64,000 bases of DNA from Streptomyces lydicus (GTDB lineage: Bacteria > Actinomycetota > Actinomycetes > Streptomycetales > Streptomycetaceae). Of this stretch, positions 6,113-42,712 are shown one piece after another. The stretch covers positions 62,001 through 126,000 of the forward strand of contig NZ_CP017157.1 in the NCBI RefSeq assembly GCF_001729485.1, written 5' to 3'. The notes under the pieces are model-generated. The model ran no database searches. It saw only the letters and a program-made list of their open reading frames with translations, and had not been told where the DNA came from. The translations under genes and the position numbers were made by a program. The stretch's first letter is position 1; the number at the start of each line of letters is the position of its first letter.

Positions 6113-6247
6113 GTTTCACGTGAAACGGCACGGCCCCCGTCCTGTTTCACGTGAAACGAGGCGTTGCTCCCGGCGGTTTCACGTGAAACGGGCATCAGCG
6201 CGGCTGTTTCACGTGAAACCGCGGGAATCCGGTGTTTCACGTGAAAC
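6113..6247. repeat. parS: Array of five parS centromere sites
   Basis: Five exact copies of the 14-bp palindrome GTTTCACGTGAAAC lie at 6113-6126, 6144-6157, 6176-6189, 6206-6219 and 6234-6247. This is the published ParB-binding parS sequence of Streptomyces. Centre-to-centre spacing is 31, 32, 30 and 28 bp, close to three helical turns, so the sites face roughly the same side of the DNA. The spacers are unrelated in sequence, so this is not a simple tandem duplication. The array fills most of the gap between the secreted protein gene and bpa, ending 85 bp before the bpa start. Confidence 0.95.
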
Positions 6248-15475: not shown

Positions 15476-16948
15476 GTGACCATGACTGCAAGTACCGCCA
15501 ACGCTCAGCGCTTCCGCGAGTTCAAGATGCCCGACGTGGGCGAGGGGCTGACCGAGGCCGAGATCCTCAAGTGGTACGTCCAGCCGGGCGACACCGTCAC
15601 CGACGGCCAGGTCGTCTGTGAGGTCGAGACCGCCAAGGCCGCCGTCGAGCTGCCCATCCCCTACACCGGGGTGGTGCACGAGCTGCGCTTCGGCGAGGGC
15701 GTCACCGTCGATGTCGGCACCGCCATCATCGCCGTCGACACCGACCCCGGTGCCGGTCCCGCCGAGGCCCCGGCCGCCGCGGAGGCCCCGCAGGAGGCCG
15801 CCGCCGAGGAGGAGGCCGAGCCGCAGGGCCGGCAGGCGGTGCTGGTCGGCTACGGCGCCGCGCCGTCCTCGACCAAGCGCCGGGCCCGCAAGCCGCAGCC
15901 GGGCGTACCGGCGCAGCCGGAGCCGGCGAAGGCCGCGCTCCAGGCCGAGCTGAACGGGCGGACCGCTCCGGCGGCGCCCGCCGCGCCCGTCGCCCCTGCG
16001 GTGCAGCCCGCGCCGGCTGCTCCGGCCGGGAGTGCCGTACCCGCCGTGGGCCGGCCGCTGGCCAAGCCGCCGGTGCGCAAGCTCGCCAAGGACCTCGGCA
16101 TCGACCTGGCGACGATCCTCCCGACCGGTCCGGACGGGATCATCACCCGCGAGGACGTGCACGCCGCCGCCACGTCGGCAGCACCGGCCGAGGTGCCCGG
16201 GCCCGTCGCGGTCGCCGCGGCCGAGTCCGGCACCGTCGACACCACCGCACGCGAGAGGCGGGTGCCGGTGAAGGGCGTACGCAAGGCCACCGCCCAGGCG
16301 ATGGTCGCCAGCGCCTTCACGGCTCCGCACGTCACGGAGTTCATCACCGTCGACGTGACCCGGACGATGAAGCTCGTCCAGGAGCTGAAGCAGGACCCGG
16401 ACATGGCGGGGCTGCGGGTCAACCCGCTGCTGCTCGTCGCCAAGGCGTTCCTGGTCGCCCTCAAGCGTCACCCCGAGGCCAACGCGGCCTGGGACGAGGC
16501 GAATCAGGAGATCGTCCACAAGGACTACGTCAATCTCGGCATCGCGGCGGCCACCCCGCGCGGGCTGATCGTCCCGAACATCAAGGACGCCGGGGTCAAG
16601 ACGCTTCCGCAACTCGCCGCCGAGCTGGGCGACCTGGTCGCCACGGCCCGTGAGGGCAAGACGTCCCCGGCGGCGATGGCCGGCGGCACGGTCACCATCA
16701 CCAATGTCGGTGTCTTCGGTGTCGACACCGGTACGCCGATCCTCAACCCGGGGGAGTCGGCGATCCTCGCCTTCGGCGCGGTCAAGCTCCAGCCGTGGGT
16801 GCACAAGGGCGCGGTGAAGGCCCGTCAGGTCACCACCCTGGCGCTGTCCTTCGACCACCGTCTGATCGACGGCGAACTGGGCTCCAAGCTGCTCGCGGAT
16901 GTGGCGGCGATCCTGGAGCGCCCGAAGCGGCTCATCACCTGGGGCTGA
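15476..16948 (+). CDS. bkdC: Branched-chain 2-oxoacid dehydrogenase E2 acyltransferase
   Basis: A 490-residue E2. It has one N-terminal lipoyl domain (about 12-90; lipoyl Lys54 in VETAKAAVELP), an Ala/Pro-rich linker, a peripheral-subunit-binding domain (VRKLAKDLGIDLATILPTG, about 197-230), a second Ala-rich linker, and the catalytic domain from about 260 with DHRLIDGE near the C-terminus. It transfers branched acyl groups from lipoate to CoA and scaffolds the complex. GAGGAG precedes GTG 15476; ATG at 15482 is an alternative. Its stop is followed after 34 bp by a parS site centred in a long inverted repeat. Confidence 0.94.
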   Translation: MTMTASTANAQRFREFKMPDVGEGLTEAEILKWYVQPGDTVTDGQVVCEVETAKAAVELPIPYTGVVHELRFGEGVTVDVGTAIIAVDTDPGAGPAEAPAAAEAPQEAAAEEEAEPQGRQAVLVGYGAAPSSTKRRARKPQPGVPAQPEPAKAALQAELNGRTAPAAPAAPVAPAVQPAPAAPAGSAVPAVGRPLAKPPVRKLAKDLGIDLATILPTGPDGIITREDVHAAATSAAPAEVPGPVAVAAAESGTVDTTARERRVPVKGVRKATAQAMVASAFTAPHVTEFITVDVTRTMKLVQELKQDPDMAGLRVNPLLLVAKAFLVALKRHPEANAAWDEANQEIVHKDYVNLGIAAATPRGLIVPNIKDAGVKTLPQLAAELGDLVATAREGKTSPAAMAGGTVTITNVGVFGVDTGTPILNPGESAILAFGAVKLQPWVHKGAVKARQVTTLALSFDHRLIDGELGSKLLADVAAILERPKRLITWG

Positions 16949-16968
16949 GCCGGCATACGGGACCATTC

Positions 16969-17010
16969 GGCCCCGGGGTGCGGTTTCACGTGAAACCACG
17001 CCCCGGGGCC
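16969..17010. terminator. parS: Terminator-like palindrome with parS at its centre (after the bkd operon)
   Basis: parS GTTTCACGTGAAAC at 16983-16996 is the middle of a 42-bp inverted repeat whose outer arms are GGCCCCGGGG/CCCCGGGGCC. There are only two internal mismatches. In RNA it would fold into a strong hairpin. It begins 20 bp after the E2 stop, between convergent genes. Confidence 0.85.
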
Positions 17011-17032
17011 GGGTCGCGTTCGGAGTGGCGTC

Positions 17033-28253: not shown

Positions 28254-30293
28254 TCAGCCGCGCTCGTCGCTCTCCTCACCGGCACCGCTCCTCCTGCCCT
28301 TGCCGCCCTCCCCGCGCTCGTCGCGCGCGAAGAGCTGCGTCAGCGTGCTGATGGTGTAGACGTCGGTGGCCTCCTCGTCCACCAGATGCATCTCGGCGAG
28401 CCGGTCCAGGCCGTCCTGGGTGCGTTCCGGGTCGTACCCGGCGAGCGCCGCCGCCACCGAGGCGTTGAGATGGCCGTCGGCGCTGGTCGCCAGGGCGCTG
28501 AGCAGCCGTGCGTCGTCCGCCGACAGCCGGGCGACGGACATCCGCAGCGCCGCCGCCATCCCGGTGTCCTCCGCCGACAGCAGCGCCAGCCGCCGCCGCT
28601 CGTCGCGCAGCGCGGCGGCGAGCCGGGCCAGCCGCCAGCGCGGCCGGGCGGTCAGCTGGGCGGCCGCGGCGCGCAGGGCCAGCGGCAGCCCGTCGCACAG
28701 GTCGACCAACTCCCGGGCAGCGGCCGGGTCCTCGGCCACGCGCTCCGGACCGAGCATGGCCCCGAGCAGCGCGGCGCCCTCCTCATGGCCGAGTGCCTGG
28801 AGCCCGACGGGACGGGCGCAGTCGGTGGCGACCAGACCGTCGAGGCGGCTGCGGCTGGTGACGACCGTGGCGCAGTGCAGGCCACCGGGCAGCAGCGGCC
28901 TGACCTGCGCCGAGCTACGCGCGTTGTCGAGGACGACCAGCAGCCGGCGGTCCGCGACCAGTGACCGGAACAGCGCCGAGGCGGCCTGCGCCGAACCGGG
29001 TACCCGTTCCTGGGGCGTGCCGAGCGCGAGCAGGAAGTCGCGCAGGATCTCGGCGGGCGCGGCCTCGTCGCCCTCGCCGAAGCCCCGCAGATCCGCGAAG
29101 AGCTGCCCGTCGGGGAAGGCGTCCGCGTGCAGATGGGCCCACTGCACGGCGCAGGCGGTCTTGCCGACGCCGGCCGGTCCCGCGACCACCGCCAAGGGGC
29201 TCTCGCCGGTCGTACGGTCGGTCAATGCCTCGGTCAGCGCGCCGAGTTGCTCCTCCCGGGCCAGGAAGCGGGCCGGGGGCCTGGGCAGCAGCCGCGGTGC
29301 CGACCCGGTCCGCCCGGAGCCGTCACCGGCGGTCGACCCGCCGTCCGCACCGCCCGGGCCACCGGTCGCGTCACCGGCAGCGGGTCGCTCCCCGGCGGAC
29401 GCCTCGATCGCCTCTCCCGCGTCGGCGCCTCCTTGGAGCGGCACCCGTCCGCCCTGTCCGTGTTTCACGTGAAACGACGGTGCTCCGGCGGGGCCGTCGC
29501 CCGCCCCGCGCGTGGCGTCCGCCGGCCGGTTGGGCTGACGCCCCGCGCCGGCCGCCTCGGCACGCAGAATCTCCTCGTACGCCTCGCGCAGCCGCTCGCC
29601 GGGATCGACACCCAGCTCCTCGTTGAGCAGCCGGCGGGTGCGGTGGAACCACTCCAGCGCGTCGGACTGCCGGCCGGTACGGAACAGCGCCCGCATCAGC
29701 CCGGCGATCAGGCCCTCCCGCAAGGGGTGGTTGACGGCGGCGGAGTAGAGGATGGCCGCTGCCTGCTCATGCTCACCGAGCGCGCCGTGCGCCCGCCCCA
29801 GCGCTTCGACGGCCGTCAGCCGGCGCTCCTCCAGGGCATGTGCCGCGGCCGCGAACGGCGGGCTGGTGACCGTGCCGGTCAGCGCGGGCCCGCGCCACAG
29901 CCCCAGCGCCTCGCGCAGCAGCGGCACCGCATCGGCCGGTGCCGCCTCGGGGCGGGCCAGCGCCACCAGCTCGCCGAACCGGTGGGCATCGATCAGTTCT
30001 TCCGGCAGACGCAGCAGGTAGGCCGAGCCGTGGGTGGTCAGCTCGATGCCGTATGCCTCCGCCCCGCCCTCGGCGAGCGTGGCGCGCAGCCGGGAGACGT
30101 GGCCCTGGACGACCGTACGGGCGTGTTCGGGTGGCTCGTCCTCCCACAGGGAGTCGATCAACTGCTCCAGTGGGACGGTGGTGTTGGGCTGCAGCAACAG
30201 CAGCGCCAGCACACTGCGCCGTTTGGCGGGCCCGAGCGACAGCTCTCCGGAGCCGGTCGTCACGGCGATCGGGCCGAGCAGTGAGAATTCCAA
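28254..30293 (-). CDS. AfsR/SARP-family regulator with BTAD and NB-ARC domains
   Basis: A 679-residue regulator. An OmpR-like winged HTH (about 1-95; GPAKRRSVLALLLLQPNTTV) and BTAD (about 96-245; HRFGELVALAR, EALEWFHRTRRLLNEELGVDPG-like end) define a SARP. A low-complexity linker (about 246-335) contains FHVKH, encoded by an exact parS. The NB-ARC ATPase has P-loop VVAGPAGVGKTACAVQ and RRLLVVLDNA. A winged-helix region ends the protein; the TPR array of full AfsR is missing. The start is TTG 30293 with GGAGGG eight bp before it, inside the end of the M18 gene, so the two are translationally coupled. Targets are unknown; no antibiotic cluster is adjacent. Confidence 0.9.
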   Translation of the reverse strand: MEFSLLGPIAVTTGSGELSLGPAKRRSVLALLLLQPNTTVPLEQLIDSLWEDEPPEHARTVVQGHVSRLRATLAEGGAEAYGIELTTHGSAYLLRLPEELIDAHRFGELVALARPEAAPADAVPLLREALGLWRGPALTGTVTSPPFAAAAHALEERRLTAVEALGRAHGALGEHEQAAAILYSAAVNHPLREGLIAGLMRALFRTGRQSDALEWFHRTRRLLNEELGVDPGERLREAYEEILRAEAAGAGRQPNRPADATRGAGDGPAGAPSFHVKHGQGGRVPLQGGADAGEAIEASAGERPAAGDATGGPGGADGGSTAGDGSGRTGSAPRLLPRPPARFLAREEQLGALTEALTDRTTGESPLAVVAGPAGVGKTACAVQWAHLHADAFPDGQLFADLRGFGEGDEAAPAEILRDFLLALGTPQERVPGSAQAASALFRSLVADRRLLVVLDNARSSAQVRPLLPGGLHCATVVTSRSRLDGLVATDCARPVGLQALGHEEGAALLGAMLGPERVAEDPAAARELVDLCDGLPLALRAAAAQLTARPRWRLARLAAALRDERRRLALLSAEDTGMAAALRMSVARLSADDARLLSALATSADGHLNASVAAALAGYDPERTQDGLDRLAEMHLVDEEATDVYTISTLTQLFARDERGEGGKGRRSGAGEESDERG
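29462..29475. other. parS: Intragenic parS site
   Basis: Exact GTTTCACGTGAAAC inside the linker of the SARP/NB-ARC gene, where the minus strand reads it as FHVK. It is the only copy of the fifteen located in a coding sequence. Confidence 0.93.
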
Positions 30294-33861: not shown

Positions 33862-34344
33862 ATGTACGGCTACGACCAGAACGCGGGTGCCGGGCAGCAG
33901 CAGTACGGCGCGCCACCGCCACCGCCCCCGCCGCAGCAACCGGCCTCCGGGGGGTACGGCGAGCAGCCGCTGTACCCCGAGCCGTCCCCGCCCTCCCTCG
34001 CCGACGCGGTGCGTGCCTTCACCACCGGCTCGATGTCCGCCGAGGACTTCCAGGGCATCTTCTCCACCTCCAAGGTCTACTGCCCGCGCGGTGACAACCC
34101 CGGCTTCCTGGCGCTGCACAACACCCAGCAGCCGGTGATCCCGATGTTCACCTCGCTCAAGGAGCTGCGGCGGTACGCGGGCAAGGAGTCCAAGTACTTC
34201 GTGATCACCGGCGCCGAGGTGCTCGACCTGCTGCCGACCGGCTACGGGTTCGTGCTCGACATGGAGGGCGACCACCGCATGGTCTTCGACGCGAAGGCCG
34301 TGGAGCAGATGGTGGACTTCGCGATGCGTCGGATGTACGGCTGA
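33862..34344 (+). CDS. SseB-like N-terminal domain protein
   Basis: A 160-residue protein. The N-terminus is Tyr/Gln/Pro-rich (YGYDQNAGAGQQQYG with a run of prolines) and probably disordered. Residues ~45-160 resemble the SseB/YP_ domain of Streptomyces proteins: SLADAVRAFTTGSMSAEDFQ, FLALHNTQQPVIPMFTSLKE, VLDLLPTGYGFVLDMEGDHR. The same domain occurs in type III secretion enhancer SseB, but no such system exists here. TACGCT at 33849-33854 lies 7 bp before the ATG without a Shine-Dalgarno sequence; a leaderless transcript is possible. Divergent from the acyl-CoA dehydrogenase gene. Confidence 0.72.
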   Translation: MYGYDQNAGAGQQQYGAPPPPPPPQQPASGGYGEQPLYPEPSPPSLADAVRAFTTGSMSAEDFQGIFSTSKVYCPRGDNPGFLALHNTQQPVIPMFTSLKELRRYAGKESKYFVITGAEVLDLLPTGYGFVLDMEGDHRMVFDAKAVEQMVDFAMRRMYG

Positions 34345-34394
34345 CCGCTCCCGCCGCACCCCATATCACCGTTTTGACCTGCGGAAACGCGGGT

Positions 34395-34441
34395 GGGAAT
34401 GCCGCACGCCTTGCAGGTTGTTCAGTATTCAACTAAGTTGA
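34395..34441 (+). promoter_or_regulatory. SigR-like promoter overlapped by a palindromic operator, before pirin
   Basis: GGAAT (34396-34400) and GTT (34420-34422) are 19 bp apart, matching the published GGAAT-N18/19-GTT pattern of the thiol-stress sigma factor SigR. The palindrome TCAAC-TAA-GTTGA (34429-34441) falls at the expected transcription start and resembles MarR/HxlR-type operators. The pirin ATG follows at 34464 with GAGGAGG. Confidence 0.5.
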
Positions 34442-34463
34442 CTGCACGACCGAGGAGGCCGTC

Positions 34464-35417
34464 ATGCCCGCTGTGACCGTAGAGAACCCGCTGGCCCTGC
34501 CGCGTGTGGCGGCACCCGCCACCGCGCACACCCGTCCCGTGCTGGCCGTTGCCACCGCTCCGAGCGGATTCGAGGGCGAGGGCTTCCCGGTGCGCCGGGC
34601 GTTCGCCGGCATCGACTACAAGTACCTCGACCCGTTCATCATGATGGACCAGATGGGCGAGGTGGAGTATGCGCCGGGAGAGCCCAAGGGCACGCCCTGG
34701 CACCCGCACCGCGGCTTCGAAACCGTCACGTACCTGATCGACGGCACGTTCGTGCACCGTGACTCGCACGGTGGCGGCGGCACCATCAACGACGGCGACA
34801 CCCAGTGGATGACGGCCGGCTCCGGCCTGCTGCACATCGAGGCGCCGCCGGAGTCGCTCGTGATGTCCGGCGGTCTCTTCCACGGCCTCCAGCTGTGGGT
34901 GAACCTGCCGAAGAGCGACAAGATGATGGCTCCTCGGTACCAGGACATCGGCGGCGGCCAGGTGAAGCTGCTGACCTCCGCGGACGGCGGTGCGCTGCTG
35001 CGGCTGATCGCCGGTGACCTCGACGGCCACCGGGGACCGGGCGTCACGCACACCCCGATCACGATGATGCATGTGACCGTGAACCCGGGTGCCGAGCTCA
35101 CCCTGCCCTGGCGCAGCGACTTCAACGCTCTCGCCTACGCGCTCGCCGGCCGCGGCTCGGCCGGCGCCGAGGGCCGTCCGTTCCGCATGGGGCAGGCGGT
35201 CGTGTTCGGCACCGGTGACTCGATCACGATCCGGGCGGACGAGACCCAGGAGTCGCGCAGCCCGAACTTCGAGGTCGTCCTGTTGGGCGGGCTGCCGATC
35301 CGCGAGCCGATGATGCACTACGGCCCGTTCGTGATGAACACCCACGCCGAACTGGCCCAGGCATTCGAGGACTTCCAGGCCGGCCGGCTCGGCACCATCC
35401 CGGCCGACGAGGTCTGA
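34464..35417 (+). CDS. Pirin-family protein
   Basis: A 317-residue bicupin. The N-terminal cupin has the metal site HPHRGFETVTYLIDG (two His), a third His in GTFVHRDSH and Glu in HIEAP, as in human pirin and YhhW. The C-terminal half keeps PITMMHVTVNPGAELTLPW. Pirins bind Fe(II) and act as redox switches or quercetinases. The ATG at 34464 has GAGGAGG upstream. The promoter looks redox-linked (SigR-like) and carries an operator palindrome. It is monocistronic and its transcript ends in the parS-centred palindrome at 35448-35483. Confidence 0.92.
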   Translation: MPAVTVENPLALPRVAAPATAHTRPVLAVATAPSGFEGEGFPVRRAFAGIDYKYLDPFIMMDQMGEVEYAPGEPKGTPWHPHRGFETVTYLIDGTFVHRDSHGGGGTINDGDTQWMTAGSGLLHIEAPPESLVMSGGLFHGLQLWVNLPKSDKMMAPRYQDIGGGQVKLLTSADGGALLRLIAGDLDGHRGPGVTHTPITMMHVTVNPGAELTLPWRSDFNALAYALAGRGSAGAEGRPFRMGQAVVFGTGDSITIRADETQESRSPNFEVVLLGGLPIREPMMHYGPFVMNTHAELAQAFEDFQAGRLGTIPADEV

Positions 35418-35447
35418 GGTCCCGTCGGGCGGGCGGCCACGAGGTGA

Positions 35448-35483
35448 CCGGGGGCGGTGTTTCACGTGAAACACCGCCCCCGG
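35448..35483. terminator. parS: Perfect 36-bp palindrome: terminator arms around parS
   Basis: parS GTTTCACGTGAAAC (35459-35472) is the exact centre of a perfect inverted repeat with outer arms CCGGGGGCGGT/ACCGCCCCCGG. It starts 31 bp after the pirin stop and 49 bp before the next gene. As DNA it is a ParB site; as RNA it would be an 18-bp-arm hairpin with no unpaired loop beyond steric limits. Confidence 0.9.
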
Positions 35484-35532
35484 GCCCGTTCCGCCTCCGC
35501 CCCGGGGCGGGCGGCCGTGGTGGACTGTCGGG

Positions 35533-36687
35533 GTGCGAAACGACTCGGATCACGACCCCCGCGGCGCCGACGGCGAACGACCGCTGCCCGACAAGCCGTT
35601 GCTGCCGATCGAGGCCCGCCGTGCCGCGGCCTGGTGCCTGGTCGCGCTGCTGATCGCGGCCGTGCTGGCCCTCGGGGTGTGGCTGTGCATCTTCCTGAGC
35701 GCGGCGGTCACCCCCGTCCTGCTGGCGCTGCTCGGCAGTGCGCTGCTCGGGCCGCTCTACCGCCGGCTGGTGGCGATGAAGCTCAACCGCTCGCTGGCGG
35801 CCGGGCTGACCTGCGCGGTCCTCGTGGTGGTGGTCGGCGGCGCCGGTTACATCGTCGTCAGCGCTCTGATCGACACCGGGGACCAGATCCTGGCCTCGCT
35901 CAAGGACGCCGCCAAGGATCTCTCCAAGACCTTCGGCGCGGCCGGTACCTCGCTCGACGACCTCGCCAACAACGCCAAGGGTTTGGTCAGCAAGTTCGGC
36001 GGGGTCGCGGCCTCGGGACTGCTGGCCGGGGTCAGCGTGGTCAGCCAGTTCATCGCCGCGTCGGTGCTGGCCCTGCTGCTGACGTTCTTCTTCCTGCGGG
36101 ACTCCGGCAAGGCCGTCCGCGCGCTGCACGACTGGGCGCCGGGCAACTCCGCGCCGCAGCTGGAACGGATGGCCCGCCGCGGTTTCCAGGCCATAGAGGG
36201 CTTCATGCGCGGCACCACCCTCATCGCGCTGATCGACGCCACCTGCATCACCGTCGGACTGCTGGTCCTCCAGGTGCCCGGCGCCCCCGGCCTGGGCGCG
36301 CTGGTCTTCGTCGGCGCCTACATCCCCTACCTCGGTGCCTTCATCTCGGGCGCCGTCGCGATCCTGGTGGCGTTCGCCGACCGGGGCTTCGTGATCGCGC
36401 TCTGGGCTCTCGGTGTGGTCCTCGCCGTACAGGTGCTGGAGGGGCATGTGCTCCAGCCGATGATCCAGAGCCGTACGGTCCAGATGCATCCGGCGACCGT
36501 CATGCTGGCGATCACCGCGGGCGCCAGCCTCGCCGGCATCCTCGGCATGCTGCTGTCCGTCCCGCTGACCGCCGCCGCCTCCGGCGTGCTGCACGAGCTG
36601 CGCAAGCACTACGCCGCCGGCTCGGCCTCCGAGGCGGACTCCGACTCCGGTGACACCGGGCCTGCGGCCTCCGCCGCGTCCTCGTAG
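35533..36687 (+). CDS. AI-2E family transporter (TqsA-like permease)
   Basis: A 384-residue membrane protein of the AI-2 exporter/UPF0118 family with about seven transmembrane helices. Typical features are the paired N-terminal helices, the long amphipathic extracytoplasmic-type segment (about 120-160, TGDQILASLKDAAKDL), and the C-terminal GHVLQPMIQSRTVQMHPATVM motif. Substrates of most members are unknown; Na+/H+ exchange has been shown for some. It begins with GTG 35533. The last 79 bp overlap the 3' end of the convergent SpoIIE gene, and its tail (GSASEADSDSGDTGPAASAASS without structure) is Ser/Ala-rich. Confidence 0.88.
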   Translation: MRNDSDHDPRGADGERPLPDKPLLPIEARRAAAWCLVALLIAAVLALGVWLCIFLSAAVTPVLLALLGSALLGPLYRRLVAMKLNRSLAAGLTCAVLVVVVGGAGYIVVSALIDTGDQILASLKDAAKDLSKTFGAAGTSLDDLANNAKGLVSKFGGVAASGLLAGVSVVSQFIAASVLALLLTFFFLRDSGKAVRALHDWAPGNSAPQLERMARRGFQAIEGFMRGTTLIALIDATCITVGLLVLQVPGAPGLGALVFVGAYIPYLGAFISGAVAILVAFADRGFVIALWALGVVLAVQVLEGHVLQPMIQSRTVQMHPATVMLAITAGASLAGILGMLLSVPLTAAASGVLHELRKHYAAGSASEADSDSGDTGPAASAASS

Positions 36688-38783
36688 AGCTCGAACCACG
36701 TCGACTTGCCGTCGCCGCGCGGATCCACCCCCCACGCCCCGGCCAGCAGCTCCAGCAGCACCAGCCCGCGTCCCGAGGACGCCAGCTCGCCGGGGCTGCG
36801 ACGGTGCGGCAGTTCATCGCTGCTGTCGGAGACGTCGACGCGGATCCGCCGGGCGCCCGGTGCCCCGGAGATCTCGGCGACCAGCAGCGCGTCCCCGTCG
36901 GTGTGCGTCAGGACGTTGGTGATCATCTCGGAGACCATCAGCACCGCCGAGTCGACCTGGTCGGCGTCGGCCCAGTCGTGCAGCACCTCGCGGACCTGCC
37001 GGCGGGCCTCGGCGATCCGCTGCGGCTCGGCCTGCGCGACGGCGAGCACGGTGCGCCGCACCGGCTGCCGGGCCAGTGGGCCACCGGCGCCCACCCCGCA
37101 GCTGGCGACCTCGCGGCGCAGGAGCAGTACGGCGATGTCGTCCTCACGGCGGTCCACCAGCGGACCCGTGGTGTGGTGCGAGGACGGCCCGTGCACCGCC
37201 TGGACCAGGGCGTCGGCCAGCCGCTCCAGGTCCTCGTGGTCCGCGTCGGGCTGATGCGACTCGATGATGTCGCGCAGCCGGGCCCAGCCGGTCTCCAGGT
37301 CGTGGCCGCCGGTCTCGATCAGCCCGTCGGTGCACACCACCATGGTTTCGCCCGGTTCCAGCACCAGCCGGGTGGTGGGGTAGTCGGCGTCCGGGACGAT
37401 GCCCAGCGGCAGCCCGCCCGCGGTGGGCCGGACCAGCATCGTGCCGTCGGCCAGCCGGATCGCCGGATCCGGGTGCCCGGCCCGGGCGATGTCCAGCAGG
37501 CCGGTCGCCGGGTCCACCTCGATGTACAGACAGGTCGCGAAGCGCTGGTCGTCCTCGGCGTGGCCGTGGAACTCGGTCGCGTTGATCCCGGCGAGGAAAC
37601 GGGAGGCCCGCGCGAGCACCGCGTCGGGGTGGTGGCCCTCGGACGCATAGGCGCGCAGCGCGATCCGCAGCTGCCCCATCAGGCCGGCGGCCCGGACGTC
37701 GTGCCCCTGGACGTCCCCGATGACCAGCGCGAGCCGGCCGGACGGCAGGGGGATCATGTCGTACCAGTCGCCGCCGACCTCCAGCCCGCCGCCGGTCGGG
37801 ACGTAGCGGGCCGCGACCGTCATTCCCGGGATGTCCGGCTGCACCGTCGGCATCATGCTGCGTTGCAGTCCCAGCGCCAGCTCCTGCTGCTCCTCCTGCA
37901 TCCCGGCCCTGGCCAGTGCCTGGGCCAGCATCCGGGCGACGGTGGTCAGCACCGAGCGCTCGTCGGGGGTGAAGGCGACCGGTTGGGCGAAGGCCGCCAT
38001 CCAGGCGCCGATCGTCCGGCCCGCGTTGACCAGCGGCAGGAACGCCCAGGACATGCGGCCGAAGGGGGCGGCCAGCGGCCAGGTGGCGGGGTAGCGGCGG
38101 CTGTACTCCTCGGGGCTGGGCAGATAGAGGGCCCGCCCGGAGCGGATGACCTCGGCGGCCGGGTAGTCGGTGTCCAGCGTCATGTCGAGGAAGGGCTTCT
38201 GGTCGTCCGGGTGGTGGCCGTGGTGGCCGATCACCGAGATCCGGTCGCCCTCGATCCCGAAGACCGCCAGGCCGTCCGGCATGAAGCCGGGCATGGACAG
38301 CCCGGCCGCCACCCGCAGCACCTCGGCCGTGGACCGGGCCTCGGCCAGCGCCCGCCCCGCGTCCAGCAGGAATGCCTCACGGGAGCGGCGCCAGTCGCCG
38401 GTTATCGGGGTGTGCGCCGCGGAGGTCCCGGGCTGTGGCTCGGGCACCTCCTGGAGCGTGCCGACCAGCTCGAAATCGCCGTCGACGAGCCGGGGCCGGG
38501 AGCGGGAGCGGACGATGCGCAACACCCGCCCCTGCTCGTCCACGATGCGCAGCCGGGCCTCGGCGAGCGTCTCCTCGGCCACCGCGAGCTGCACGATGCC
38601 GTTGATCTCGGCGAAGTCGACGGGATGAAAACGGGAGCGTACGGCGGCCTCGCTGAGTTCCACCGGCTCGGCGGGGAGCCCGAGCAGCCGGGCCGCCTCG
38701 GCGTCCAGGGCCACCTGCCCCGAGGCGTTGTCCCAGCGCCACAGGCCGGTCGCGATGGCGGCCAGGAGGTCCTTGGTGCGCAT
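36609..38783 (-). CDS. SpoIIE-type phosphatase with PAS, GAF and RsbW-like kinase domains
   Basis: A 724-residue signalling protein. A PAS domain (about 5-110, GLWRWDNASGQVALDAEAAR) precedes a GAF domain (about 140-295), then a PP2C-type SpoIIE phosphatase (about 320-545; GGDWYDMIPLPSGRLALVIG and CTDGLIE with metal-binding Asp). The C-terminal ~130 residues are an anti-sigma-type ATPase (SEMITNVLTHTDG N-box and SSGRGLVLLELLA). Such proteins dephosphorylate anti-sigma antagonists and phosphorylate them in turn, a single-chain partner-switch. The ATG at 38783 is the natural start. Its 3' end overlaps the permease gene in antisense by 79 bp. Confidence 0.93.
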   Translation of the reverse strand: MRTKDLLAAIATGLWRWDNASGQVALDAEAARLLGLPAEPVELSEAAVRSRFHPVDFAEINGIVQLAVAEETLAEARLRIVDEQGRVLRIVRSRSRPRLVDGDFELVGTLQEVPEPQPGTSAAHTPITGDWRRSREAFLLDAGRALAEARSTAEVLRVAAGLSMPGFMPDGLAVFGIEGDRISVIGHHGHHPDDQKPFLDMTLDTDYPAAEVIRSGRALYLPSPEEYSRRYPATWPLAAPFGRMSWAFLPLVNAGRTIGAWMAAFAQPVAFTPDERSVLTTVARMLAQALARAGMQEEQQELALGLQRSMMPTVQPDIPGMTVAARYVPTGGGLEVGGDWYDMIPLPSGRLALVIGDVQGHDVRAAGLMGQLRIALRAYASEGHHPDAVLARASRFLAGINATEFHGHAEDDQRFATCLYIEVDPATGLLDIARAGHPDPAIRLADGTMLVRPTAGGLPLGIVPDADYPTTRLVLEPGETMVVCTDGLIETGGHDLETGWARLRDIIESHQPDADHEDLERLADALVQAVHGPSSHHTTGPLVDRREDDIAVLLLRREVASCGVGAGGPLARQPVRRTVLAVAQAEPQRIAEARRQVREVLHDWADADQVDSAVLMVSEMITNVLTHTDGDALLVAEISGAPGARRIRVDVSDSSDELPHRRSPGELASSGRGLVLLELLAGAWGVDPRGDGKSTWFELYEDAAEAAGPVSPESESASEAEPAA

Positions 38784-39063
38784 TGCCTCACTTTAGGGGC
38801 GTTTGGTGGGGCGCGACAGCGTGCCGGAATGTGACCGTCGTCCCACTCGCGAGCCCTTCTTCCGACCCCGAAGTCGCTGATGCGTATATGTCAACGAAGA
38901 GGCGGGGGCCGGGACGGTAACCTGGAGCGGTTATGTCAATCCTGGGGTGGCCTTTCGGGCGACCGACGGGGAGAGCGACCGGGCGTGTGAGCCCGAGTTC
39001 CGATCCCTCTCCTCTGCTCCCGACAACTCCTCACCTCGACACTCGCGACGACTTGGATGAGCG

Positions 39064-40827
39064 ATGCACCGGTACCGGTCCCATAACTGCGGCGAGCTCC
39101 GAGCCGCGGACGTCGACACGGACGTCCGCCTCAGCGGCTGGCTGCACAATCGACGTGACCTGGGCGGCATCCTCTTCATCGATCTCCGGGACCACTACGG
39201 TCTCGTGCAGCTCGTCGCCCGCCCCGGCACCCCCGCCGCCGAGGTGCTGGACAAGCTGACGAAGGAGACGGTCGTCCGCGTCGACGGCAAGGTCGTCTCG
39301 CGCGGCGCCGAGAACGTGAACCCGGAGCTGCCGACCGGCGAGATCGAGATCGAGGTCTCCGAGGTCGAGGTCCTGGGCGCGGCCCAGCAGATCCCCTTCA
39401 CGATCAACGCCGACGACGGCGTCAACGAGGAGAAGCGCCTGGAGTACCGCTTCCTCGACCTGCGTCGTGAGCGGATGCACCGCAACATCATGCTGCGCTC
39501 GGCCGTCATCTCGGCGATCCGCCACAAGATGACGAGCCTCGGCTTCAACGAGATGGCGACGCCGATCCTCAGCGCCACGTCCCCCGAGGGCGCCCGCGAC
39601 TTCGTGGTGCCGTCCCGCCTCCACCCCGGGAAGTTCTACGCGCTGCCGCAGGCCCCGCAGCAGTTCAAGCAGCTGCTGATGATCTCGGGCTTCGACCGCT
39701 ACTTCCAGATCGCCCCCTGCTTCCGTGACGAGGACGCCCGCGCGGACCGCTCGCCGGGCGAGTTCTACCAGCTCGACGTCGAGATGAGCTTCGTCGAGCA
39801 GGAGGACGTCTTCGGACCCATCGAGCAGCTGATGACCGAGCTGTTCGAGGAGTTCGGCGGCGGCCGCCACGTCACCTCGCCGTTCCCGCGGATCCCGTTC
39901 CGCGAGGCGATGCTGAAGTACGGCTCCGACAAGCCGGACCTGCGCGCCCAGCTGGAACTGGTCGACATCACCGATGTCTTCGAGGGCTCGGAGTTCAAGG
40001 CGTTCGCCGGCAAGCACGTCCGTGCGCTGCCGGTGCCGGCCGTCCAGGCCCAGCCGCGCAAGTTCTTCGACCAGCTCGGCGACTACGCGGTCCAGCACGG
40101 CGCCAAGGGCCTGGCCTGGGTGCGTGTCGGTGAGGACGGCTCGCTGACCGGCCCGATCGCCAAGTTCCTGACCGAGGAGAACGTCAAGCTCCTCAACGAG
40201 CGCCTCGGCCTGGAGCCCGGCCACGCGGTCTTCTTCGGCGCCGGCGAGTTCGACGAGGTCTCGAAGATCATGGGCGCGGTGCGCGTCGAGGCCGCCAAGC
40301 GGGCCGGCCACTTCGAGGAGAACGTCTTCCGCTTCTGCTGGATCGTCGACTTCCCGATGTACGAGCGGGACGAGGACACGGGCAAGATCGACTTCTCGCA
40401 CAACCCGTTCTCCATGCCGCAGGGCGGTCTGGAGGCGCTGGAGAACGAGGACCCGCTGGACATCCTCGGCTGGCAGTACGACATCGTCTGCAACGGCGTC
40501 GAGCTGTCCTCCGGCGCGATCCGGAACCACGAGCCCGACATCATGCTCAAGGCGTTCGAGATCGCGGGCTACGACCGGGACACCGTCGAGGAGAAGTTCG
40601 CGGGCATGCTGCGCGCGTTCCGCTTCGGCGCCCCGCCGCACGGCGGTATCGCCCCCGGCGTCGACCGCATCGTCATGCTGCTCGCGGACGAGCCGAACAT
40701 CCGCGAGACCATCGCGTTCCCGCTGAACGGCAACGCGCAGGACCTGATGATGGGCGCCCCGACGGAGCTGGAAGAGGCCCGGCTCAAGGAGCTCCACCTC
40801 AACGTCCGCAAGCCGCAGGTGAAGTAG
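39064..40827 (+). CDS. aspS: Aspartyl-tRNA synthetase
   Basis: A 587-residue class II synthetase of bacterial type with a GAD insertion. The OB-fold anticodon domain starts VRLSGWLHNRRDLGGILFID. Class II motif 2 appears as FDRYFQIAPCFRDEDARADR and motif 3 as GGIAPGVDRIVMLLADEPNI. It charges tRNA-Asp. The ATG at 39064 is well placed. The 280-bp gap before it (38784-39063) contains a possible -10 TAACCT near 38920 but no T-box or other leader that I can recognise. Its transcript ends at the perfect parS-centred palindrome 40853-40884. Confidence 0.97.
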   Translation: MHRYRSHNCGELRAADVDTDVRLSGWLHNRRDLGGILFIDLRDHYGLVQLVARPGTPAAEVLDKLTKETVVRVDGKVVSRGAENVNPELPTGEIEIEVSEVEVLGAAQQIPFTINADDGVNEEKRLEYRFLDLRRERMHRNIMLRSAVISAIRHKMTSLGFNEMATPILSATSPEGARDFVVPSRLHPGKFYALPQAPQQFKQLLMISGFDRYFQIAPCFRDEDARADRSPGEFYQLDVEMSFVEQEDVFGPIEQLMTELFEEFGGGRHVTSPFPRIPFREAMLKYGSDKPDLRAQLELVDITDVFEGSEFKAFAGKHVRALPVPAVQAQPRKFFDQLGDYAVQHGAKGLAWVRVGEDGSLTGPIAKFLTEENVKLLNERLGLEPGHAVFFGAGEFDEVSKIMGAVRVEAAKRAGHFEENVFRFCWIVDFPMYERDEDTGKIDFSHNPFSMPQGGLEALENEDPLDILGWQYDIVCNGVELSSGAIRNHEPDIMLKAFEIAGYDRDTVEEKFAGMLRAFRFGAPPHGGIAPGVDRIVMLLADEPNIRETIAFPLNGNAQDLMMGAPTELEEARLKELHLNVRKPQVK

Positions 40828-40852
40828 CGCCGGCGGAGCCGCACAGACGCCG

Positions 40853-40884
40853 AGGGGCGGTGTTTCACGTGAAACACCGCCCCT
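40853..40884. terminator. parS: Perfect 32-bp palindrome: terminator arms around parS
   Basis: parS GTTTCACGTGAAAC (40862-40875) is the exact centre; outer arms are AGGGGCGGT/ACCGCCCCT. It starts 25 bp after the aspS stop. The arm CGGTGTTTCAC is shared with the 35448-35483 element, though the distal sequence differs. Confidence 0.9.
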
Positions 40885-40960
40885 TCGGCGTAAGCGGCCG
40901 CGTGCTCCAACCGCACCACATTTGTGGCCGGGTCACGGCCGCGGACGCACTGTGGTGCCC

Positions 40961-42712
40961 ATGCAGCAAGCCAGCCTTCTCCCCGGCACGTCCGTCCTGG
41001 GCACGCGGACGCGCACGGCACACTTCGCTCCGGTCCGCGATCTGCGGTGGCTGATCGCGCTGGCCGTGGTCTTCACCGCTGCCCAGCTCTACCTGGCCGT
41101 CGGCACGCCCGGCCTGGGATGGGACGAGACGGTCTACGTCAGCCAGGTCGACCCCCGCGCCCCGGCCGCGTTCTTCAGCGCCCCGCGTGCCCGCGGCATC
41201 ACCCTGCTCCTCGCCCCGGTCGCCGTCCTGACCACCTCGGCGCCCGTCCTGCACTGCTACCTCGCGGTGCTCTCCGGCGCCGGGTTCCTGCTCACCCTGT
41301 GTCTCTGGCGGCGTCTGCTGCCCGCCCCCGTACCGGCGCTGGGCGGTGCGCTGTTCGCGGGTCTGTGGATCACCCTCTTCTACGGTCCGCAGGCGATGCC
41401 CAACCTGTGGACCGCCTATGCCGCCCTCGTCGCCACCGGCTGCTTCCTGCTGGCCGTACGGCAGCCGGCGGCCCAGCTGGCCCCGGGCGCCGGCCGGAGC
41501 GCGGCGGTGGGCCTCGCCGTCGCGGTGGCCGTGGCCGGCCTGATGCGTCCCCTCGACGCCGTCTGGCTGGCCCTGCCGCTCTTCGCCGCGGCGCTCTGCG
41601 TCCCCGCCTGGCGGCGCTCCACCGTGCTGCTGGCCGTGCCGGCCGGCCTGGCCCTCGGCTGCGCCGAGTGGATCGTGGAGGCATTCACCTCCTACGGCGG
41701 GTTGTTGGCCCGGCTGCGGCAGGCCGGGGAGATCCAGGGCGGGCTGGGCTGGCACCCGTCCTTCGGCGACCACGCACGGGCCCTCCAGGGCAAGACGCTC
41801 TGCCGTCCCTGCGACCTGGCCTGGGACCATCCGGTCACGGCGGTGTGGTGGTTCGCGCTGCCCCTGGCGGTCGCCGGAGCGGTGTGGGCGGCGTCGCGGG
41901 CCCACGAACCCGGCGGGACGCTGCACCGCTTCGGGCCGGTGTGGCCCGTCCCGCGCGGCCGCGCACCGGGCAGCGGGCGCGGCGAACTCGGCCTGGAGCC
42001 GGTACGCCTGGGCACCCTCGGGCTGAACCCCGTGCGGGCGGTCGGCCTCGGTCTTGACGGCGCGATGCACCGCTACGGACCGGTCTGGCCCCCGTCCAGC
42101 CTGCGCGACCCCGGCGGGGCGCGGCACCGCTACGGTCCGGGTCCCATCGCCCTCCCCGCCCTGGCCGGCCTCTGCCTCGCCCTCCCCTATCTGCTGATGG
42201 TGGACTACGCGGCCCCGCGCTTCCTGCTGCCCGCCTATGCCCTGCTGCTGATGCCCGCGGCCTGGTTCCTGTACTGGCTGACCCTGCTGCCCCGCCGCCG
42301 GCACGGCTGGGCGATCGCCGCCCTGGTCCTCGCGCTGCTGGCCCATGAGGGGATGCAGCTGGCGATCCTGTACAAGATGCACCGGGCGACCGTCCGCGCC
42401 CAGCACGACATCGGGCGCGTCGTCGGCACGCTGCGCACCGCGGGGGTCCGGCCGCCCTGCGCGGTGAGCGGCGAGGAGGCGGTACGGCTGGCGTACGGGA
42501 TCCGCTGCGCGGCCCGGCAGCCCGGCGGCCACGACGCCAGCATCAGCCCGGCGGGCCTGACCCGGCTGGGCGCCCGCCACCCCGCCGCCGTGGTCCTGGC
42601 CGCCGGCCGGAAGCCGCCGCGCTACGCCCGGGACTGGCGTCCGGTCCGCCTCCCGCCGACGCCCGGCCTGAAGCGGCTCAGCGCCTATCTGTCCCCGGCG
42701 GCCCGGCCCTGA
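40961..42712 (+). CDS. Polytopic membrane protein, GT-C glycosyltransferase-like
   Basis: A 583-residue protein with about ten transmembrane helices. The first extracytoplasmic loop has GWDETVYVSQVDP after helix 1, the Asp-Glu arrangement expected of GT-C polyprenyl-phosphate glycosyltransferases. A hydrophilic insertion (about 315-400) contains three related units: LHRFGPVWP, MHRYGPVWP and RHRYGPGP. The last ~110 residues are soluble (HDIGRVVGTLRTAGVRPPCAV) and would face outside. Sugar and acceptor are unknown. The ATG at 40961 is chosen; the frame upstream runs into the parS palindrome. No sugar or wall gene lies beside it. Confidence 0.72.
   Translation: MQQASLLPGTSVLGTRTRTAHFAPVRDLRWLIALAVVFTAAQLYLAVGTPGLGWDETVYVSQVDPRAPAAFFSAPRARGITLLLAPVAVLTTSAPVLHCYLAVLSGAGFLLTLCLWRRLLPAPVPALGGALFAGLWITLFYGPQAMPNLWTAYAALVATGCFLLAVRQPAAQLAPGAGRSAAVGLAVAVAVAGLMRPLDAVWLALPLFAAALCVPAWRRSTVLLAVPAGLALGCAEWIVEAFTSYGGLLARLRQAGEIQGGLGWHPSFGDHARALQGKTLCRPCDLAWDHPVTAVWWFALPLAVAGAVWAASRAHEPGGTLHRFGPVWPVPRGRAPGSGRGELGLEPVRLGTLGLNPVRAVGLGLDGAMHRYGPVWPPSSLRDPGGARHRYGPGPIALPALAGLCLALPYLLMVDYAAPRFLLPAYALLLMPAAWFLYWLTLLPRRRHGWAIAALVLALLAHEGMQLAILYKMHRATVRAQHDIGRVVGTLRTAGVRPPCAVSGEEAVRLAYGIRCAARQPGGHDASISPAGLTRLGARHPAAVVLAAGRKPPRYARDWRPVRLPPTPGLKRLSAYLSPAARP

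What the first reader, a model, noticed from the sequence alone, without database searches (positions are those of the whole stretch)
35448..35483. parS is the exact centre of a perfect 36-bp terminator-like palindrome
Eleven bp on each side of the 14-bp parS continue the same symmetry. It sits 31 bp after the pirin stop. One element would serve as a ParB site in DNA and a transcription-ending hairpin in RNA. A dual-use centromere/terminator has not, to my knowledge, been described.
Basis: partly seen in the sequence, partly recalled or inferred. Interest (0 to 1): 0.75.

Follow-up and report, generated by a model that had tools for sequence, protein, structure and literature searches.

The report
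Centromere site inside a gene-end hairpin
In Streptomyces bacteria, some of the short DNA sites that the chromosome-segregation protein ParB binds also form the tip of a strong hairpin just after a gene ends, so one sequence appears to be shaped both by chromosome segregation and by the ending of transcripts.

Summary
In detail: 35448-35483 is a perfect 36-bp palindrome centred on parS. It is not a one-off. In six genomes of the genus (155 parS sites), 26 have at least 8 of 10 complementary flank pairs, against 2.6 by permutation. Of these, 24 lie within 110 nt after a stop codon, 1 elsewhere between genes and 1 in a called gene.

At the pirin site the arms change in pairs across species. At a genus-wide site after the CCA-transferase gene (called pcnA here), 47 of 47 judged genomes have parS and 41 have an armed one. 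There all 16 arm pairs show two-sided changes, with 43 compensatory changes on a 35-genome tree. Relatives without parS carry other hairpins there. Sometimes two parS share one pair of outer arms.

Best reading: parS is the tip of a U-poor terminator or 3'-end hairpin. Termination was not tested. A G-U/A-C test did not separate RNA from DNA selection; neutral palindrome repair remains a partial rival. Listings of searches showed no paper on it.

The parts
35448..35483 (.). 36-bp perfect palindrome: parS at the tip of a gene-end hairpin
35459..35472 (.). parS, GTTTCACGTGAAAC
   Evidence: parA- and parB-like genes in the same genome
35448..35458 (+). 5' arm of the hairpin, CCGGGGGCGGT
35473..35483 (+). 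3' arm of the hairpin, ACCGCCCCCGG; no U-run behind it
34464..35417 (+). pirin gene whose transcript would end in the hairpin
   Evidence: Pfam Pirin and Pirin_C
35533..36687 (+). next gene, AI-2E family transporter, same direction; starts 50 bp after the hairpin
   Evidence: Pfam AI-2E_transport
40853..40884 (.). second parS hairpin of the window: perfect 32-bp palindrome; parS 40862-40875 begins 34 nt after aspS (39064-40827); a bulged CGCCGA/TCGGCG stem extends it
16968..17011 (.). third parS hairpin of the window, 92% complementary arms; parS 16983-16996 begins 34 nt after the stop at 16948

Best explanation
At many gene ends in Streptomyces the parS palindrome is the tip of a long GC-rich hairpin that acts as a U-poor intrinsic terminator or as a 3'-end-forming and protecting structure. 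As double-stranded DNA the 14-bp core loads ParB. When transcribed, the same core plus its flanking arms folds into the hairpin that ends or protects the upstream transcript. SHOWN: the palindrome; its recurrence; its concentration at gene 3' ends; paired change of the arms; other hairpins in the same slot in relatives without parS. INFERRED: that RNA polymerase stops or that 3' ends form at the base of the hairpin; that ParB occupies these particular parS; that the parS core, being already a hairpin seed (GUUUC-ACGU-GAAAC), was captured into, or recruited as the tip of, existing terminators.
For: (1) Six genomes, 155 parS: 26 armed (8 or more of 10 flank pairs) against a permuted mean of 2.6, maximum 9 in 2000 permutations; still 22 against 1.75 (maximum 7) for pairs 3-12 only. 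(2) Place: 24 of 98 sites within 110 nt after a stop are armed, against 1 of 33 other intergenic and 1 of 24 in called genes, Fisher p = 0.0006, treating sites as independent; in a larger, partly redundant pool, tandem 19/90, convergent 21/73, divergent 0/16, other 1/41. (3) Covariation at the pcnA site: 27 genomes; 84.7% of cells paired (the five invariant parS pairs included) against 71.1% shuffled and 42-51% slid; all 16 arm pairs have both-sided changes; score 0.355 against 0.124 shuffled and at most 0.130 slid. (4) On a tree of 35 genomes, 43 Watson-Crick to Watson-Crick double changes and 32 losses at pairs 1-10; for pairs 3-10, 34 double changes against 1-6 for slid partners. (5) Pirin site: score 0.366 against 0.147 shuffled and at most 0.171 slid; S. 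violens and S. ochraceiscleroticus (L030, L032) have a wholly different stem with a compensatory C-G/T-A change between them. (6) Same slot without parS: 69 species after pirin have a median best window of -36.1 kcal/mol against -26.9 for shuffles; parS-less stems after pcnA in L215, L219, L223, L227, L240. (7) Two parS inside one pair of outer arms: 8 of 68 neighbouring pairs against 1.2 permuted, maximum 5. (8) The hairpin base is 66 nt after the stop; Streptomyces transcript ends at intrinsic terminators have medians of 66-76 nt after the coding sequence, about 4 nt beyond the stem, with few U and long stable hairpins (PMC12207403, passages seen).
Against: No transcript data. No U-run at this site; T count after armed stems only 2.10 of 10 against 1.54 (p = 0.05). 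G-U pairs in the sense strand are not clearly preferred over A-C: 3 against 7 and 12 against 11 at the pcnA hairpins, 13 against 10 in 23 tandem sites. The predicted separate hairpin at unarmed gene-end parS was not found. Most gene-end parS (74 of 98) are unarmed. One of 11 pirin-site relatives (L028) has no arms, and neither has the nearest relative by pcnA (L147) at the pcnA site. Outside the family only 1 of 56 sites is armed.
Confidence: 0.72

Rival explanations
1. Neutral palindrome growth: a perfect 14-bp palindrome seeds hairpin extrusion, and template switching during replication copies one flank onto the other, giving long complementary arms without any function in RNA.
For: Changes go mostly directly from one Watson-Crick pair to another with few G-U intermediates (43 double, 27 to other non-pairs, 5 to G-U); no clear G-U/A-C asymmetry. 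Template switching is reported to create and maintain RNA hairpins (PMC8794818, title and start of abstract seen in the listing).
Against: It should act wherever parS lies in free intergenic DNA, but arms are concentrated at gene 3' ends, with 0 of 16 divergent sites (small number). Hairpins without parS exist in the same slot. It could well be the mutational route by which selected terminator arms are kept, rather than a full rival.
Confidence: 0.14
2. The long palindrome works as DNA: extended arms strengthen ParB loading, help cruciform extrusion or form a special centromere class.
For: The pairing is mostly Watson-Crick and strand-symmetric; the T-A pair next to parS is near constant; at the pcnA site the arms have a GAGGGGCG-like consensus, which recurs at this site and at 40862.
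Against: The arms still vary (24 distinct 10-mers in 28 genomes) and some stems are unrelated (L030, L032, L175). Arms also surround two parS at a time and persist around a damaged core (L033, GTTTCCCGTGAAAC). The placement follows gene ends.
Confidence: 0.09
3. The hairpins are a dispersed repeat: copies of one GGGGCGGT-parS-ACCGCCCC element spread between gene ends.
For: Three sites of this genome share that 30-bp core (97459, 102862, 8182762), and similar G-rich arms are common at the pcnA site.
Against: Other armed sites of the same genome have unrelated arms, and orthologous sites differ between species while staying paired. The outer flanks of the three sites are not alike.
Confidence: 0.05

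Closest known systems
DNA uptake sequences (DUS) as inverted repeats in Neisseria terminators
   Same: A short DNA signal read by a protein also forms the stem of a terminator hairpin (PMC2397512, passages seen).
   Different: There two copies of the signal in inverse configuration make the stem and the purpose is DNA uptake. Here one palindromic centromere site is the tip and the arms are other sequence.
Streptomyces U-poor intrinsic terminators (HS-U-lack, 'I-shaped')
   Same: Long stable GC hairpin, few U, transcript end about 66-76 nt after the coding sequence (PMC12207403 and PMC8269248, passages seen).
   Different: The apex is an intact parS core instead of free loop sequence.
Chromosomal parS of Streptomyces
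   Same: Same 14-bp site; many copies near oriC. S. venezuelae ParB ChIP-seq peaks correspond almost all to parS (PMC4852455, passages seen); on average 22.8 (11-65) parS per chromosome in 20 genomes (PMC8743542, passages seen).
   Different: In the passages that I saw, these papers do not describe flanking arms or gene-end hairpins.
Pseudomonas parS3/parS4 upstream of genes
   Same: A parS that also matters for transcription of neighbours (PMC7022226, passage seen).
   Different: There ParB bound upstream represses expression; here parS sits at transcript ends and its RNA copy would matter.

Membership tests
Chromosomal parS | Consensus GTTTCACGTGAAAC (recalled; also in PMC7022226 as TGTTNCACGTGAAACA), clustered near parAB/oriC | tested here: met
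   Exact match; 38 of 40 copies within 143 kb of the contig ends, ParA- and ParB-like genes at 8.195-8.197 Mb of 8.201 Mb; the oriC position itself is inferred
Chromosomal parS | Bound by ParB in the cell | not testable with these tools
   Only literature on S. venezuelae as a whole
Canonical Rho-independent terminator | GC-rich stem-loop | tested here: met
   16-bp central stem; 81-nt stretch -60.7 kcal/mol, z = -5.0
Canonical Rho-independent terminator | U-run directly after the stem | tested here: not met
   No stem with T-run found in 34000-37000; tail GCCCGTTCCG
U-poor (I-shaped) Streptomyces terminator | Stable hairpin shortly after the stop codon, few U | tested here: met
   Base 66 nt after the stop; armed gene ends as a group (13 with a single parS) have median -39.2 against -27.3 kcal/mol for 137 ends without parS
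U-poor (I-shaped) Streptomyces terminator | Transcript 3' ends at the stem base | not testable with these tools
   No Term-seq tables could be opened (0 supplement look-ups allowed)
U-poor (I-shaped) Streptomyces terminator | Stem kept by compensatory change | tested here: met
DUS-type terminator | Stem built from two inverted copies of the signal | tested here: not met
   One palindromic parS at the apex here; two parS sharing one stem in 8 of 68 neighbouring pairs elsewhere

The most novel reading that the evidence does not exclude
ParB on the DNA and hairpin formation in the RNA compete or cooperate: when ParB fills these parS (for example during sporulation) it changes where transcripts of the neighbouring genes end, so the centromere is wired into gene-end regulation; and, the other way, terminators keep RNA polymerase from sweeping ParB off the centromere.
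Probability: 0.15. Interest if true: 0.88.

Novelty: new variant of a known kind. Interest (0 to 1): 0.7.

Why it matters
It would suggest how Streptomyces can keep dozens of parS in compact gene-rich DNA: a gene-end hairpin is a place where a palindrome costs little. It gives a natural set of paired hairpins whose DNA is bound by a CTP-switch clamp, in which conflicts between transcription and centromere assembly can be measured. It also gives parS predictors a flank rule, and shows a centromere site evolving inside a structure that keeps its pairing.

Tried and rejected
RNA against DNA selection by counting G-U against A-C mismatches: no clear asymmetry, so not decisive. Prediction that unarmed gene-end parS have a separate terminator: not supported; an earlier version was confounded by the larger masked length at twin sites and is not used. 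Generality in the class: 39 genomes outside the genus had a parS; I fetched regions of 20 of them, and 1 of 56 sites is armed (L193:2761), so no claim is made outside Streptomycetaceae. A second set of 11 genomes (70 parS; 14 armed, permuted 3.0, maximum 9; 12 of 34 gene-end, 0 of 20 other intergenic, 2 of 16 in genes) was fetched around pcnA after I knew that site to be armed, so it is not an independent replicate. In the six-genome set 9 of the 26 armed sites are pcnA sites, among them the one counted as 'in gene' (L141:16301). A free-energy limit of -25 kcal/mol separates little: 65 of 69 parS-less pirin ends reach it, but shuffles average -26.9, and the 28 of 33 parS-less pcnA ends of other genera have no shuffle control. 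Plasmid BLAST of the site: no match. Rfam: no match in 34400-41200. Gene contexts come from a home-made caller (first tried), not from annotation; short genes may be missed. The context classes were wrong through a bug and were redone. Parsimony ties were resolved towards Watson-Crick states, which favours double changes; the slid controls share that bias. Permutation and Fisher tests treat sites as independent although genomes are related.

Full report
WHAT IS THERE. The window lies at G000:C1:62001-126000 of an 8.2-Mb single-contig genome. I take it to be a Streptomyces, because its pirin protein is 97% identical to that of S. lydicus. At 35448-35483 stands a perfect 36-bp palindrome: parS GTTTCACGTGAAAC (35459-35472) with 11 more complementary bases on each side. 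It begins 30 nt after the pirin stop codon (35417) and ends 50 bp before the start of the next gene, an AI-2E family transporter in the same direction. The RNA folds into a central 16-bp stem with a 4-nt loop (for the whole intergenic stretch). No U-run follows.

NOT ALONE. The genome has 40 exact parS, 15 of them in the window. Most have little flank symmetry, but 8 of 40 have at least 8 of 10 complementary flank positions. Three of these are in the window: this site, 40862 after aspS, and 16983. I fetched 115 parS sites of five further genomes of the genus (G008, G010, G011, G012, G014); with the own 40, that makes 155. Three parS of G014 and three of G010 lay outside the fetched stretches. 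26 of 155 are armed; exchanging right flanks between sites of the same genome gives 2.6 on average and never more than 9 in 2000 permutations. Counting only pairs 3-12, since the two pairs next to parS may belong to the ParB consensus, gives 22 against 1.75, maximum 7. Nine of the 26 are at one orthologous place, the pcnA site described below.

WHERE. With genes called by a simple codon-usage caller, 24 of 98 parS within 110 nt after a stop codon are armed, but 1 of 33 other intergenic and 1 of 24 inside called genes. The intergenic exception is the parS at the parA start (see noticed items). The in-gene case (L141:16301) lies in the pcnA end region. In a pooled, partly redundant set, convergent ends are armed in 21 of 73, tandem in 19 of 90, divergent in 0 of 16 and the rest in 1 of 41. 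For 36 armed gene-end sites of both genome sets the nearest stop is a median 28 nt from the parS edge.

PAIRED CHANGE AT THE PIRIN SITE. In 80 named Streptomycetaceae loci with the pirin gene (the best 80 of at least 576), 11 have an exact parS just after it, all among the 14 loci with the best matches to the window's pirin. In 9 of these 11 the strongest hairpin window includes an intact parS, in L033 it includes a damaged one, in L028 none. L026, L027, L029 and L035 have GGGGGCGGT-type arms. L030 and L032 have an entirely different CACGGC(C/T)GTGCCCGG stem that pairs fully or with one U-G, and differ from each other by a compensatory C-G/T-A change. L031, L034 and L039 have two parS inside one pair of outer arms (8, 7 and 7 of 10 pairs). 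L033 keeps the arms around a damaged core (GTTTCCCGTGAAAC), with an intact parS next to it. L028 has parS without arms. For eight single-parS sequences (the window and seven relatives; L031, L033, L034 and L039 were left out because their layout differs) the covariation score is 0.366 against 0.147 shuffled and at most 0.171 for slid partners.

PAIRED CHANGE AT A GENUS-WIDE SITE. After the CCA tRNA nucleotidyltransferase gene (called pcnA here; NCBIfam TIGR02692), as a rule between it and a convergent neighbour, all 47 genus genomes that could be judged have parS within 130 nt; 41 have at least one armed parS, and in 44 the strongest hairpin window holds a parS. Usually there are two parS, each with its own arms. 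For the hairpin next to the neighbour gene, 26 of 28 genomes have at least 8 of 10 pairs with 24 different arm sequences, and for the one next to pcnA 15 of 28 (28 of 30 loci used; L167 and L171 have another layout). L147, the nearest relative of the window's genome by pcnA, is unarmed there. An alignment of 27 of the 28 (L165 left out) shows two-sided changes at all 16 arm pairs and a covariation score of 0.355, against 0.124 shuffled and at most 0.130 slid; RNAalifold predicts the inner 17 pairs of that stem by itself. On a tree of 35 of 41 genus loci (six skipped for layout or length), 43 double Watson-Crick changes and 32 losses fall on pairs 1-10; for pairs 3-10, 34 double changes against 1 to 6 in slid controls. 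The arms share a GAGGGGCG-like consensus at this site, so they are not free of sequence preference.

BEFORE AND BESIDE parS. Where relatives lack parS in the same slot they have other hairpins: after pirin, 69 species have a median best window of -36.1 kcal/mol against -26.9 for shuffles. After pcnA, family members of other genera without parS (33 of 56 judged) have a median of -38.8 (no shuffle control), and L215, L219, L223, L227 and L240 show clear long stems without parS. In one sister genus (g47), 10 of 11 judged loci carry sites changed fully or half to GTTCCACGTGGAAC, a Pseudomonas-type parS (recalled), and L209, L218, L220, L236, L244 and L253 keep arms of at least 8 of 10. Across the held loci, 8 of 68 neighbouring parS pairs share complementary outer arms, against 1.2 permuted, maximum 5. 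A DNA-only extended ParB palindrome does not predict this.

LIMITS. Termination was not tested. Strand asymmetry of wobble pairs did not discriminate. Few G-U intermediates appear on the tree, as template switching or two-strand use would give. U content after armed stems is only slightly raised. Masking the parS region, armed, unarmed and parS-less ends have equally weak remaining hairpins, so unarmed sites do not show the separate terminator that I had predicted. Outside the family, 1 of 56 parS in 20 fetched regions is armed. Literature: the listings of searches for parS with terminator, hairpin, intergenic or convergent genes, and for the parS letters with Streptomyces, showed no title or abstract start about parS in terminators. 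Some listings were cut (15 of 23 papers, 12 of 28), and subscription journals are mostly not held. I saw passages of PMC7022226, PMC5157956, PMC4852455, PMC8743542 and PMC12511625, not whole texts.

VERDICT. The comparative evidence makes dual use the best reading: DNA centromere site plus RNA gene-end hairpin. The RNA half still needs a 3'-end measurement.

Noticed in passing
L022:16176-16189 (G000:C1:8197175); also L273:5405, L275:3937, L279:4984, L280:1952, L282:16932: A parS stands about 10 bp before an ATGGACGA-type start that looks like parA's; its partly complementary flanks (CCGCCCCCgATGg) would pair over the start codon, hinting at an autoregulatory hairpin or ParB operator at parA.
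   Followed up: partly
L209, L218, L220, L236, L237, L244, L249-L251, L253 (genus g47): In one sister genus 10 of 11 judged loci carry pcnA-end sites changed fully or half to GTTCCACGTGGAAC, with arms kept in several: a shift of the centromere motif.
   Followed up: partly
L131:1467, L232:130, L028:16536, L031:10986, L221:1415: Two parS in a row inside one pair of complementary outer arms, at several different gene ends.
   Followed up: yes
window 6113-6247: Five parS at 28-32 bp spacing within 135 bp after one gene, without arms: a parS array of another kind.
   Followed up: no
window 29462-29475: A parS inside a called gene; relatives L028, L029, L030, L032, L033 and L035 have parS inside a called gene at a similar distance from pirin.
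   Followed up: no
L193:2761: Single armed parS (12 flank pairs by the arm score, 25 nt after a stop) outside Streptomycetaceae.
   Followed up: no
L177 (G042:C12:160000-178000): Nine parS in 8.2 kb in a genome of another family; the gene caller finds almost no genes there, so the stretch may be a mobile or unusual region.
   Followed up: no
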